Origin: Oscillospiraceae bacterium
Lineage (GTDB): Bacteria; Bacillota; Clostridia; Oscillospirales; CAG-382
Direction: 5' to 3'
Length of the DNA: 64,000 nt
NCBI GenBank assembly: GCA_015064485.1
Contig: SVSD01000003.1
Coordinates: 1-64,000, forward strand
Position numbers and translations under genes: made by a program. The notes beneath the pieces are model-generated. The model was not told where the DNA came from. It searched no databases and saw only the letters and a program-made list of their open reading frames with translations. Positions 52,801 to 59,530 of this stretch are shown piece by piece; position 1 is the stretch's first letter; every line of letters starts with the position of its first letter.

Positions 52801-53328
52801 TTAAACGCATTCATCTTCTTTTTCGTTCTGGGTCGAATACTCTTCGCCGATATCCCGTCCGAGGTCGCAGGTATAGAGCCATTCGATCTTATCACCGTCC
52901 CTGAGCTTATATTGCGAACAGCCGAAGCCCGGAAAAATGCCGTTTACACGGTACATCCACCCCGAAAGCTCGCCGCAATCAAACTCATAAAGATTTGCAA
53001 TGCCCTCAATATATGTGCTGTTGTATATGGGTGTGTCGGTGAATTCAAGGTGAATTTTGTTTTGATTCATTTCTCGCAAAAGCACATTGAAAACACTTTC
53101 GCCCTCATAAAAAACAACTTCTTTTTCCGCAAAAATTATGCCGTCTTCCGGGACGATTTCCACCTTTTCGCCGTCAAGCTTTTCAATGTTTTCAAGCACA
53201 GTGCCGCATCTTACCGAAAGGGTGCAGGTAAGCTCTTTTTCGGTATTTTCTTCGCTTTGCTTTCCGGCGCAACCGACAAGCAAAAAAACTATTGAAATAA
53301 GACAGAAAGATAATAGGAATTTTCTCAT
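52801..53328 (-). CDS. Lipoprotein with DUF4430 (transcobalamin-like C-terminal) domain
   Basis: Lipobox IVFLLVGC; GELSGWMYRVNGIFPGFGCSQYKLRDGDKIEWLYTCDLGRDIG. Confidence 0.8.
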   Translation of the reverse strand: MRKFLLSFCLISIVFLLVGCAGKQSEENTEKELTCTLSVRCGTVLENIEKLDGEKVEIVPEDGIIFAEKEVVFYEGESVFNVLLREMNQNKIHLEFTDTPIYNSTYIEGIANLYEFDCGELSGWMYRVNGIFPGFGCSQYKLRDGDKIEWLYTCDLGRDIGEEYSTQNEKEDECV

Positions 53329-53337
53329 TTTTTACCT

Positions 53338-54414
53338 CTATAAAAGCTTTGAATTTGAAAGAAGATTATACAGCATACCTGCAATTTCACCTCTTGTGAC
53401 GGCTTCCTTCGGGTTTATTTTCATCACACTGCCTTCAAGAATTTTGGTTTTGCAGCAGAAAGCAATCGATTCTTTCGACCAATCGGATGCCTTTTTGTAA
53501 TCGGTAAAGCCTGCAAGAATTTTTCGTACCTCTGTGTCGGAAAGGGCAGTGTTGTGTCCGCAAAGCTTTGCCGCCCGTGCTAACATTACTGCAGCTTCTT
53601 CACGGGTGATAGTACCATTCGGGTTAAATTTGTTTTGAGAAACCCCCTTTATGATGCCGTAATGATAGGCCGTTCCCACATATCCGAAAAACCAATCTTT
53701 TGAGGTAACATCGTTAAAAACTGCTGTTTCCTTTTGTACAAGACCAAGCCCTCTTGCGACGATCGTTGCAGATTCCGCTTTTTCGTCATCACGATATTTT
53801 GAAAGTGCCTGAAGTGCCATTGCCGTAACATCTGCATCAGCCAAATCTCCCGATAGTGCCCATCCGCCGTCGGGAGTTTGTTTTTCAAGGATGTAGCTTA
53901 CATACATCTCCCTTGTTGCCTGAACCTTTGCAGTGGTATTTTCGGGGATATCATAACTTCCGCAGTCAAGGGCGATAAGGGCAAAGATTGCTCCGTTTAT
54001 TCCTTGCCACACAGTTTTTTCGTAATCACCGAGGGGTGTCAAAAGGTTGTATCCTGCCACATCCGAGGGGTCTTTTCCGATAGAAGTGAGGGCAATAATC
54101 ACTCTCGAATATTCGGTATATTTTTTGTTGTGAAGCTTTCCGCCTTGCTTTTTAACATATTCTTCCACATTTTTATAGTAATCGGCGTAATACTTGTCTG
54201 GAATATCAATTCCACATCTAGCAAGTCCTAAAACCACCCATTCGCCGCCGATCTGGCCGACCTGTGGATCCGGCACAGCCTTGTATAAATACAAGGCCGT
54301 ATCGTTCAATACAGAGTCGATGTCATAATTTGCTTTTGCAAAAGCCGTTATCGGTATTCCGAAAAGCATTATAAGGGACAAAAAGATCGATAAGATTTTT
54401 TTCATAAAAAACAC
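53338..54414 (-). CDS. Secreted alpha/alpha-barrel (prenyltransferase/squalene-oxidase-like or cobalamin_bind-like) protein with SLH domains
   Basis: Signal peptide; GGEWVVLGLARCGIDIP, QTPDGGWALSGDLADADVTAMALQALSKY; SLH VFNDVTSKDWFFGYVGTAYHYGIIKGVSQNKFNPNGTITREEAAVMLARAA. Confidence 0.8.
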   Translation of the reverse strand: MFFMKKILSIFLSLIMLFGIPITAFAKANYDIDSVLNDTALYLYKAVPDPQVGQIGGEWVVLGLARCGIDIPDKYYADYYKNVEEYVKKQGGKLHNKKYTEYSRVIIALTSIGKDPSDVAGYNLLTPLGDYEKTVWQGINGAIFALIALDCGSYDIPENTTAKVQATREMYVSYILEKQTPDGGWALSGDLADADVTAMALQALSKYRDDEKAESATIVARGLGLVQKETAVFNDVTSKDWFFGYVGTAYHYGIIKGVSQNKFNPNGTITREEAAVMLARAAKLCGHNTALSDTEVRKILAGFTDYKKASDWSKESIAFCCKTKILEGSVMKINPKEAVTRGEIAGMLYNLLSNSKLL

Positions 54415-54417
54415 CTT

Positions 54418-57400
54418 TTATTTTTCCGTATTTTCGCAAAAACGGGTAAGGACAGCGGCAACCTGTGCACGGGTCGACACATCCTTGGGAGAAAGGTTAG
54501 ATTCGCTTGTGCCGTTTATAAGTTCCATCTTATATGTCCACCTCATTGCTTCAAGGGCAAAACCGCTTATATCGTCCGCATCCGAAAATTTCGATATATC
54601 AGCGATTTCCGTAACATCCATACCGTTTGCTTTTGCAAAGCGGCAGAGGATCACCGCCATCTGCTCGCGAGTCACATATTCTTCGGGTGCAAACTCTGTT
54701 TCGCTTTTGCCGTTTACGATTCCCTTTGATGCCGCCCATGCTACCGCATCGCGATACCATGCGTTTTCGGGAACATCTGCAAAGGCGCAGGTCTTTTCCG
54801 AAATTTCCGGATTTGCCATTCTGTAAATGACAGTTACAAGCATTGCCCTTGTCATTTTGATATCGGGTTCAAAGCCGTTTTCTGTGCCCTGCATCAGATC
54901 GTTTTCGTAGACATACTTGACATAATCGTAATGCCAATCGTCTTTTTTTACATCGTTGAAGGTGGTTTCTGTAAATAAGTTTTTCGGAGTTTCTTCGGGT
55001 TCTTCTTTTGCATCATCCTTTTCTTGTGTTTTTTCTTCATCTTTTTCATCCGGAATTTGCTGAATGAATGAAGAATCCGAATCGGATTTAAAGGTGTCTC
55101 CGATATCCTCGCCAAGCTGACAGGTGTATTGCCATTTGACAATATCCCCGTTTTTGACTTCAAAATCAGATGCACCGTAGCGTATAAACTCTTTGTTGAG
55201 TGTGATCATCCAGCCCGAACCCGAGCCTGCATCAAATTCGCCGAACGATTCATAATCGATGCCCTTATGGGTAAAGGTGCCGATTGCTGCAAGATAAAAG
55301 CCATCTTTTGTAGTGCCCGTATGCTGATAGGTAAATCCGTAAGCATCAAGCAGACGAAGTGTTACATCAGCAACCGTGTCGCCTTCTTTGAAAGGCACCT
55401 TTTTTGATGAAATTATTGTACCTAAAGCCTTCGGATAGGTAACATTTGATTCTCCCTTAACTCGTTTTCCGTTGTCAACAAAGCTTACATATACATATCC
55501 TTCGATTTCATCATCCGAAATATCGTATTGAGGAGATGAGGAAGAGGGATTTGATTTTTCCTTGACAGTTAAAGTGATGGTATATGCGTCACTTTCCGTT
55601 TCGCTGTCTTTTGCTGCAAAAGTGAGTGTGTATGTGCCGATTTCATTTGGGGTAAAGGTAAAATATCCGTCATCAATCGGGGTTTCTTCGGATTCATTTA
55701 CCTTTACAATATAGGAAAGAGTGTCATTGTCGCGGTCGGTGAATATTTTTGACATACTGACAGCGTATGTTCCGCCAAGATTAAGAGTTGCTGATTTCGG
55801 TGCGTTTTCACGAATATATGGCGCTGTGTTTCCGCTCGGAAGCATACCGATACTTATTTTGATATCGGGAAGCAAGCTTCTTGTGGTGTAAGTTGTCTTG
55901 TTATCCCTTGTTATGCCTCCGCCGTCGGGGATGTTTCTGTGGCTGTCGCCGTCATCCGAATATCCTGTAACGCCAATTACGCCAAGTCCGATGTATCCGT
56001 CGGTAAGCGTGAATTCGTTTTTTTCGCTGTCTTCGGGAATGACAAACTTTATGGTTGTTCCCTCTTTTGAAAAGTTGTATTGCTTGCCGTCGCTTCTTAT
56101 TTTTTTGTCGCCAAGGGTGTAACTAAGATGAACCCCTCCGTCACCGTCTGTATTGCTTTTGTAGCCGGGGTTATATGTTCCCGCAATTTTCGGAATTGGC
56201 GTGTGCACCCCGATAAGCGTAAGGCTTACCTCATCGCCTGCCGAAATCGGTTTTCCGGGATTTGTAATGTTTTTTACGGAAAGCTCGACCTTGTCACCGC
56301 GCACGACCTGATATGCCACACCCTTGTCTGTGGCAACACGGATGATGTTGTTGCCCGACATAATGGGAGCGGTATATACTCCGTCGAAACAATCAAGAAC
56401 GGTGTAAGTCTTGCCCTTGTCGTTTGATACCGAAACTTTGGTGATAATCTCATCTTTTGCCGTGGGGGAAAGCTTTATTTCTCCGCCATCTCCGAAAAAG
56501 TAAAGGGTGTCAAATTCGCTGTCCCAAGGCTTTTTGTTTGCTTCTGAATAGACCATACTGCCGTAACTTACTTTGCTTTCAATGCCAAAATCAACTTCGG
56601 GAGCATTGTCGCCGACTGTGACCAAAAAAAGGCCGCTTCTCGCAGGATCTGTTGCACCGTATAAGCCATCAAACGAGCTTCCACTGATACTTATTGCATC
56701 GTATGTAACCTCAACAATTGCCCTACCTTCTCCGATGGCAGAAAGCTTTTGCCAGTTACCGCTTCCGTTTGTTGTCGGCTGGTTTTCAACGGGTTCAAGA
56801 TTTATCACATCTTCCCCTGAAAGAATATCGAAATGAAAGTCGGGTTCAATTATGTGGTTGTTGTAGGTAAGGTCAATTATCTGCCAGGTTCTGTATGCCT
56901 TCAGCGTTTTTTCATCACCGATATTCATTGACAGGTGATTGTGCTTGTTGATATTGAGAAGGATGCTGTCATCACCTACGATTGCGGCATCTGAGGTTGA
57001 GGTGAAATAATCTTGTCTTTCGGCGGGAATGGCATCGCTTTCTGTGTGAAGCACAATTGCGGTATTGCCGGTTTTCATATATCCTGCATTTGTCAGCTTT
57101 CCTTCCATAGAAACACGATAGCTTAAATCGCCCTCAGCCGCAAAGTAGTGGGTGGATGTGCCGTTGCCGTTGTCAACAGTTGCAAGAGGAGTGTAGACTG
57201 TATGTACAAAGTAGTTGTTTTTATATGAGAAAAGCTTCGCAACAGCACCTGTTGTCGTTGTTACAGTTTTTGGATTCTTGTACGGAACTTTTACTGTAAC
57301 TTTTAATGAATCTTCGGTTATTACAAGAGTTTCGGTTTTGGTACTGTATACAGATGTATTTTCGGGAGATGCCGTAAAAGCATATTCCGTGTCGGGCATA

Positions 57401-59098: not shown

Positions 59099-59175
59099 TA
59101 AAATCATCCTTTCGGGGAAATTTAAATATTGTTTTTGTTTCTATGCCAGTACCGGGACATAGGCGCTCACCTCCC

Positions 59176-59225
59176 AAAAACGAAAAAACAAAAGCCGCGG
59201 CAATTCTTTTTTGAATTACCGCGGC
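59176..59225 (-). terminator. Intrinsic terminator in the 5' leader (riboswitch expression platform)
   Basis: Minus strand: GCCGCGGTAATTC-AAAAAA-GAATTGCCGCGGC followed by TTTTGTTTTTTCGTTTTT. Confidence 0.75.
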
Positions 59226-59344
59226 AGTTTTCCCGCGTCATCACACTTTGTAAGGCGAAAATGGGTACAAAAAGCAAAGCCCCCTAAAATTCCGAGTTTT
59301 GACCGAGCGGAATTTATGACGCCAAACAAAAAGCTTTTCCTATG

Positions 59345-59530
59345 AATGATCATGTACGGAAAAGCATCAGAGCAGGTCTTTTGACTCGTACATCAAGCGG
59401 TTCGGATCGCCTTCTCAGTTTCCCAATGACCGACTTTCGTCTAAAATCTTTACCTTTGTACATACAGCGACTGGTATCGTTGCGGGTTCTCACCGCATTC
59501 CCTTTTCACCGACCATACCTTGACATTTTG
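59345..59530 (-). ncRNA. Cobalamin (B12) riboswitch
   Basis: Minus strand: GGTGAAAAGGGAATGCGGTGAGAACCCGCAACGATACCAGTCGCTGT...TCATTGGGAAACTGAGAAGGCG...GAGTCAAAAGACCTGCTCTGATGC, matching the B12-box signature (AAAAGGGAA..GGTG..., GAGCCAGGAGACCTGCC). Confidence 0.85.

What the first reader, a model, noticed from the sequence alone, without database searches (positions are those of the whole stretch)
52801..59530. Riboswitch-controlled surface locus resembling a split bacterial intrinsic factor / transcobalamin system
On the minus strand a B12-riboswitch-like leader plus terminator precedes three genes: a giant SLH protein carrying a DUF4430 domain, an alpha/alpha-barrel SLH protein and a DUF4430 lipoprotein. 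Established: eukaryotic intrinsic factor/transcobalamin combine an alpha6/alpha6 barrel with a C-terminal beta domain related to DUF4430. Inference: here the two halves lie on separate cell-wall- or membrane-anchored proteins under B12 control, forming a corrinoid-capture relay. Both DUF4430 copies share the ending W.YTC.LG.DIG. No transporter gene is adjacent in the window.
Basis: partly seen in the sequence, partly recalled or inferred. Interest (0 to 1): 0.88.

Follow-up and report, generated by a model that had tools for sequence, protein, structure and literature searches.

The report
Bacterial B12-capture locus, partly broken
This is a vitamin-B12-switched set of cell-surface genes from a gut-type Clostridia bacterium whose close relatives pair proteins shaped like our own stomach and blood B12 carriers with a membrane B12 pump; in this particular genome the set looks damaged and the pump is missing.

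Summary
The sequence claims largely hold. Window 59354-59537(-) is a cobalamin riboswitch (71 bits, the only one in the genome), followed by a strong terminator, a giant DUF4430-SLH gene, a toroid-SLH gene and a DUF4430 lipoprotein. The kinship claim also holds at family level. Relatives carrying both halves on one chain give a model whose 15 best matches among 350,542 PDB chains are all transcobalamin, intrinsic factor or haptocorrin. B12 function is supported by gene linkage. 22 of 37 cobalamin riboswitches in 61 related genomes have DUF4430 downstream (about 0.3% expected each). 69 of 76 fused genes lie directly before an ECF transporter. The shortest version sits beside a homologue of CbrT, the proven B12 ECF subunit (E 6e-24).

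In this genome the "relay" is doubtful. The toroid protein lacks 180 residues (4 of 12 barrel helices plus one SLH repeat) that its nearest relative has, and the giant gene shifts frame twice. No dedicated ECF, CbrT-like or BtuF-type transporter gene was found, although a MetH-like enzyme remains. Best reading: an eroded copy of a widespread, apparently undescribed Clostridial B12 uptake system in which intrinsic-factor-like surface proteins serve an ECF pump. Binding itself is untested.

The parts
59578..59606 (-). candidate promoter TTGAAA-17-TAAAAT with TG before the -10, just upstream of the riboswitch
   Evidence: consensus match only (20 found in the region against 14 expected)
59354..59537 (-). 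cobalamin riboswitch aptamer (RF00174)
   Evidence: 71.4 bits, full model 1-189; only one in the genome
59194..59225 (-). intrinsic terminator, GCCGCGGTAATTC-AAAAAA-GAATTGCCGCGGC followed by TTTTGTTTTT
54418..59107 (-). giant surface-protein gene, interrupted: signal-peptide start at 59107, frame changes near 58875 and 58387, last open frame 58386-54418 (1322 aa, Ig-like/PKD-like domains, DUF4430, three SLH)
55123..55383 (-). DUF4430 (transcobalamin beta-domain-like) domain of the giant protein
   Evidence: 30% identical to the lipoprotein's copy
54427..54966 (-). three SLH repeats of the giant protein (cell-wall anchor)
53338..54414 (-). toroid-SLH protein (358 aa as read; database copy 343 aa), with a 180-residue in-frame deletion against its nearest intact homologue
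53773..54369 (-). remaining part of the alpha/alpha toroid (homologue residues 1-199; 8 of 12 helices)
   Evidence: (85% identity), helices
53341..53781 (-). two remaining SLH repeats (homologue residues 377-523); deletion junction at about 53773-53781
52801..53328 (-). DUF4430 lipoprotein (175 aa, lipobox LVGC)
   Evidence: 42% identical over 128 aa to the beta-domain of fused protein P0235
52870..53103 (-). DUF4430 domain of the lipoprotein

Best explanation
The locus is a reduced, probably decaying copy of a B12-uptake operon that is widespread in Clostridia. In intact relatives, low B12 lets the riboswitch leader read through into genes for surface proteins made of an alpha6/alpha6 toroid and a DUF4430 beta-domain. 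These sit on separate SLH-anchored or lipid-anchored proteins, or on one membrane-anchored chain. The same operon encodes an ECF transporter: EcfT, a doubled EcfA, and an S-component that is often fused to the ATPase. The inferred mechanism is that the DUF4430 domain takes the corrinoid first, the toroid closes over it as in intrinsic factor and transcobalamin, and the complex hands it to the ECF S-component. Shown here: riboswitch, domain make-up, fold kinship, gene linkage to ECF and to CbrT homologues, the deletion and the frame changes. Inferred: corrinoid binding, hand-over, and loss of function in this species. The intact DUF4430 lipoprotein may still bind B12.
For: Riboswitch 71.4 bits and terminator. 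DUF4430 in two genes and SLH in two. In 61 relatives 22 of 37 riboswitches have DUF4430 within 10 kb downstream on the same strand, none on the wrong side, chance about 0.003 per riboswitch. Full operon riboswitch > giant > toroid-SLH > DUF4430 lipoprotein > EcfT (PF02361) > EcfA-A'-S in G007, G027 and G036, the same genes without a detected riboswitch in G022, and a metagenome copy. A corrinoid adenosyltransferase (PF02572, 7.9e-46) lies between lipoprotein and EcfT in L106. Model of fused P0235 (pLDDT 86): PDB ranks 1-15 are all transcobalamin, intrinsic factor or haptocorrin, E 3e-8 to 9e-7; the first other protein is at 4.5e-5. Intact orthologue P0242: apart from SLH hits the best matches are transcobalamin. 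69 of 76 fused genes are directly followed by EcfT and EcfA, and 3 more have them upstream. 17 of 28 fused loci have a B12-class riboswitch upstream on the same strand. The S-protein beside DUF4430 in the short version matches 6FNP_A, CbrT, at 6e-24. Decay here: 180-residue deletion, two frame changes, no dedicated EcfT, CbrT-like S, CobA or BtuF.
Against: Nothing here measures corrinoid binding. The genome is 94% complete, so a transporter could lie in the missing part, and five other S-components of unknown substrate plus a general ECF module exist. The deletion is exactly in frame and both later gene products remain open, so function may be altered rather than lost. The frame changes come from one assembly and could be sequence errors. 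Foldseek rmsd over the whole fused chain is large (8-16 A), probably because the domain arrangement differs, so the match rests on the two domains separately. DUF4430 also occurs without a riboswitch nearby (53 of 81 matches), so not every DUF4430 need bind B12.
Confidence: 0.72

Rival explanations
1. The locus works here: the truncated toroid-SLH protein and the DUF4430 proteins together capture corrinoids at the wall and feed a shared ECF module through one of the genome's other S-components.
For: Riboswitch and lipoprotein intact. The deletion keeps the frame and is shared by seven contigs, so it is stable in the species. A MetH-like gene suggests B12 is needed. A general ECF module and five S-components exist.
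Against: Four of twelve toroid helices are missing. The giant gene is frame-shifted twice. None of the genome's frames matches the CbrT-like or fused S profiles.
Confidence: 0.15
2. The frame changes, and perhaps more, are sequence or assembly errors, and the giant gene is intact in the living organism.
For: The first frame change lies at a run of six T; both frames stay strongly coding on either side, as expected for an error or a very recent change.
Against: The toroid deletion is present on seven contigs, one longer (202,547 bases) than the window's own contig (148,638), so that part is not an assembly error. Two independent frame changes within 500 bases of one gene are unusual.
Confidence: 0.25
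3. The surface proteins bind a different ligand (another tetrapyrrole or a corrinoid breakdown product) and are merely under B12 control.
For: S-domains of the fused transporters match general ECF S models (riboflavin, folate) rather than a B12-specific one. DUF4430 also occurs away from riboswitches.
Against: Best structural relatives are all B12 carriers. The short version is next to a CbrT homologue. A corrinoid adenosyltransferase is in one operon.
Confidence: 0.1
4. The toroid is an enzyme of the terpene-cyclase or glycoside-hydrolase kind displayed on the surface.
For: Sequence searches give only squalene-cyclase or prenyltransferase-like matches.
Against: DxDD motif absent in 164 of 164 rows. 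Structural ranking favours transcobalamin over cyclases. Fused to a DUF4430 domain and linked to ECF genes.
Confidence: 0.04

Closest known systems
Intrinsic factor / transcobalamin / haptocorrin of animals
   Same: Alpha/alpha toroid plus C-terminal beta-domain (DUF4430); the model of the fused bacterial protein ranks all three as its nearest solved structures. In the animal proteins B12 binds the beta-domain first, then the alpha-domain closes, and the isolated domains bind B12 and associate only with B12 present (PMC11107200), a precedent for a split version.
   Different: The bacterial proteins are anchored to wall or membrane, often split between genes, controlled by a riboswitch and encoded with an ECF pump; no PF01122 sequence match. 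The window's own toroid is incomplete.
ECF-CbrT vitamin B12 transporter (L. delbrueckii, PDB 6FNP)
   Same: Related operons encode EcfT, EcfA and an S-component; the short operon version has a CbrT homologue (E 6e-24).
   Different: The extracellular binding protein is additional; the CbrT paper describes the S-component itself as the substrate-binding protein. In the main family the S-domain is fused to the ATPases or separate and was not shown to be CbrT-like. The window genome has neither.
BtuG / BtuH / DUF4465 surface B12-binding lipoproteins of Bacteroides
   Same: B12-controlled surface lipoproteins that capture B12 for a membrane transporter (PMC6143338, PMC8941943, PMC13398666).
   Different: Unrelated folds (beta-propeller, jelly-roll), TonB-dependent outer-membrane partners; here Gram-positive type anchoring and ECF partners.
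Class II terpene cyclases / squalene-hopene cyclases
   Same: Alpha/alpha toroid with weak sequence similarity.
   Different: No DxDD motif, extracellular, fused or paired with DUF4430.

Membership tests
Cobalamin riboswitch (RF00174) | Aptamer scores above the curated gathering score over the full model | tested here: met
   71.4 vs 31.5 bits, positions 1-189
Cobalamin riboswitch (RF00174) | Expression platform (terminator) downstream | tested here: met
   13-bp stem plus T-run at 59225-59194; switching itself untested
Cobalamin riboswitch (RF00174) | Binds a cobalamin | not testable with these tools
   needs in-line probing
Intrinsic factor/transcobalamin family | C-terminal beta-domain (PF14478 / DUF4430) | tested here: met
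   two window genes; fused relative aligns with the isolated transcobalamin beta-domain, TM 0.76 by target length
Intrinsic factor/transcobalamin family | Complete alpha6/alpha6 barrel of 12 helices | tested here: not met
   window protein lacks homologue residues 197-376, the last 4 helices; met in intact relatives
Intrinsic factor/transcobalamin family | Both domains on one chain | tested here: not met
   separate genes in the window; one chain in many relatives
Intrinsic factor/transcobalamin family | Sequence match to PF01122 Cobalamin_bind | tested here: not met
   no match up to E 1 for window proteins or up to 0.1 for relatives
Intrinsic factor/transcobalamin family | High-affinity cobalamin binding | not testable with these tools
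   needs a binding assay
ECF-CbrT type B12 uptake operon | EcfT, EcfA and S-component encoded with the surface genes | tested here: not met
   none beside the window genes; own genome has only the general EcfT; met in 69 of 76 fused-gene loci
S-layer homology proteins | SLH repeats (PF00395) above cut-off | tested here: met
   3 in the giant protein, 2 in the toroid protein
Class II terpene cyclases | DxDD catalytic motif | tested here: not met
   0 of 164 aligned rows

The most novel reading that the evidence does not exclude
Clostridia possess true homologues of intrinsic factor and transcobalamin that act as extracellular substrate-binding proteins for ECF transporters, a transporter class described as binding substrate through its membrane S-component. 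Capture may be two-step and cobalamin-triggered, with DUF4430 and toroid on separate anchored proteins. The animal B12 carriers and these proteins would then share ancestry for the same function.
Probability: 0.45. Interest if true: 0.87.

Novelty: new variant of a known kind. Interest (0 to 1): 0.72.

Why it matters
How most Gram-positive gut bacteria capture B12 is poorly known, and where the animal B12 carriers came from is open. A large bacterial family (1185 proteins found from one fused query) with both carrier domains, tied by gene order to ECF pumps and B12 riboswitches, makes both questions testable in a cultured species (Ruminococcus flavefaciens Y1 carries it). The window copy would add a natural example of how such a system erodes.

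Tried and rejected
Single-sequence PDB search of the lipoprotein found nothing useful, so kinship was tested by structure. Profile search of the fused family in PDB by sequence reached only terpene cyclases; the structural comparison reversed that ranking. Terpene cyclase rejected on the missing DxDD motif. A BtuCDF system in this genome rejected: the one FecCD match is weak and the reading frame looks like an ABC-3 metal permease, and there is no BtuF family match. Assembly artefact for the toroid deletion rejected (seven contigs). N-terminal pieces of the giant gene have no match in relatives' loci, so the frame changes rest on codon usage alone. The metagenome scan gave five relatives but no other strain of this species. 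Literature: no paper held joins DUF4430 in bacteria with cobalamin; the source of the CbrT prediction (Rodionov 2009) is not held. Searches failed on size limits and were replaced.
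Full report
What is in the window. On the minus strand a cobalamin riboswitch (59354-59537, 71.4 bits) follows a promoter-like site and precedes a 13-bp terminator with a T-run at 59225-59194. It is the only such riboswitch found in the 1.6-Mb assembly. Three genes follow: a giant surface protein with Ig-like repeats, DUF4430 and three SLH repeats; a second protein with weak terpene-cyclase-like similarity and two SLH repeats; and a lipoprotein with DUF4430.

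Two corrections. First, the giant gene is not open. Its reading frame changes near 58875 (at a run of six T) and near 58387, and the codon signal of this genome moves with it. Second, the barrel is incomplete. Against its nearest intact homologue P0242 (85-90% identical on both sides of the gap) residues 197-376 are missing. In the model of P0242 these hold the last four of twelve toroid helices and the first SLH repeat. The deleted form occurs on seven contigs, so it belongs to the species and not to one assembly. Whether other strains share the frame changes could not be checked.

What the family is. In relatives of the same GTDB family the operon is larger: riboswitch, giant DUF4430-SLH protein, toroid-SLH protein, DUF4430 lipoprotein, EcfT (CbiQ family), and a fused EcfA-EcfA'-S protein (loci L066-L068; L091 has the same genes without a detected riboswitch). 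A metagenome locus repeats it with a riboswitch (L108) and another carries an ATP:corrinoid adenosyltransferase inside the operon (L106). A second arrangement puts toroid, a two-helix membrane hairpin and DUF4430 on one chain of about 550 residues. A third, short arrangement is riboswitch, a DUF4430 protein of about 130-160 residues and a small membrane protein. A profile of seven of the latter matches only one entry of the PDB sequence set, 6FNP chain A, at 6e-24. 6FNP is ECF-CbrT, shown to transport B12 (PMC5997447).

Is the linkage more than chance? In 61 related genomes 81 DUF4430 matches and 37 cobalamin riboswitches were found. 22 riboswitches have DUF4430 within 10 kb downstream on the same strand and none on the wrong side or strand, against about 0.003 expected per riboswitch. 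Of 76 fused-gene loci in named genome records with enough sequence downstream, 69 are directly followed by EcfT and EcfA, and three more have them upstream. Of 28 such loci scanned, 17 have a B12-class riboswitch upstream on the gene's strand, and no cobalamin riboswitch lies on the other strand. The 61 genomes and 80 loci are related, so these are not independent events, but they span many genera.

Fold kinship. The fused protein P0235, modelled from 92 homologues (pLDDT 86), was compared with 350,542 solved chains: the first fifteen matches are transcobalamin, intrinsic factor or haptocorrin (E 2.9e-8 to 9.4e-7), then terpene cyclases from 4.5e-5. For P0242, after SLH structures, transcobalamin again leads (2e-5), ahead of a glucuronyl hydrolase at 5.8e-5 and cyclases at about 1.5e-4. 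Sequence alone does not show this: no PF01122 match and cyclase-like matches only. The cyclase DxDD motif is replaced in all 164 rows, mostly by DxDV or DxDI. The window's DUF4430 lipoprotein is 42% identical to the beta-domain of P0235.

How it probably works. In transcobalamin and intrinsic factor, B12 binds the beta-domain first, the alpha-domain then closes, isolated domains bind B12, and they associate only with B12 present (PMC11107200). By analogy DUF4430 would be the first captor, the toroid the lid, and an ECF S-component the acceptor; the riboswitch would shut the operon when B12 is plentiful. Every step after transcription is inference.

What is left here. The own genome keeps a MetH-like gene, a general ECF module and five S-component matches. 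No frame matches profiles of the dedicated EcfT (beyond the general one), the CbrT-like S or the fused S, and there is no BtuF-type protein or L106-type adenosyltransferase. Same-genus genomes G002 and G003 keep riboswitch > EcfT > EcfA-A'-S without the surface genes. The window therefore looks like a remnant in which riboswitch and lipoprotein are intact while barrel, giant protein and pump are damaged or gone. With 94% completeness, loss of the pump is likely but not proven.

Novelty. DUF4430 is annotated in animal transcobalamins (PMC4350170), and InterPro, from memory, names the family transcobalamin-like. CbrT is known, and the gene cbrS beside it in L. delbrueckii is named once without function; whether it encodes a DUF4430 protein was not tested. 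No held paper describes bacterial toroid-DUF4430 proteins or an extracellular receptor for ECF transporters, but most subscription papers are not held. I rate this a new variant of a known kind: ECF B12 uptake with intrinsic-factor-like receptors.

Noticed in passing
L067:1548-4352 and G017/G031 loci: In several relatives the giant SLH protein itself carries a toroid domain as well as DUF4430 (for example P0242 residues 40-265 match at 36%, E 1.9e-22, in G027), i.e. a wall-anchored one-chain intrinsic-factor-like protein.
   Followed up: partly
L106:2904-3467: ATP:corrinoid adenosyltransferase (PF02572) encoded between the DUF4430 lipoprotein and EcfT.
   Followed up: yes
L123:5896-5971: AdoCbl-II class riboswitch (RF01689) instead of RF00174 upstream of a fused toroid-DUF4430 gene in a Ruminococcus MAG.
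   Followed up: no
L154:8713-8845: A second cobalamin riboswitch lies inside the operon, between the fused toroid-DUF4430 gene and EcfT.
   Followed up: no
L065:6548-7030 (G000:C2): A third DUF4430 protein in the own genome, without a riboswitch, beside YebC, a GDSL-type hydrolase and a DUF4358 lipoprotein; DUF4430 may serve other roles here.
   Followed up: partly
L094 (G049), L095 (G059), L093 (G044): Three same-order genomes have their cobalamin riboswitch in front of what look like corrinoid biosynthesis genes and no DUF4430 nearby; read from frame order only.
   Followed up: no
P0014 (Romboutsia maritimum, 893 aa): A toroid protein with Big_2-type repeats and apparently a second toroid copy in the same chain.
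   Followed up: no
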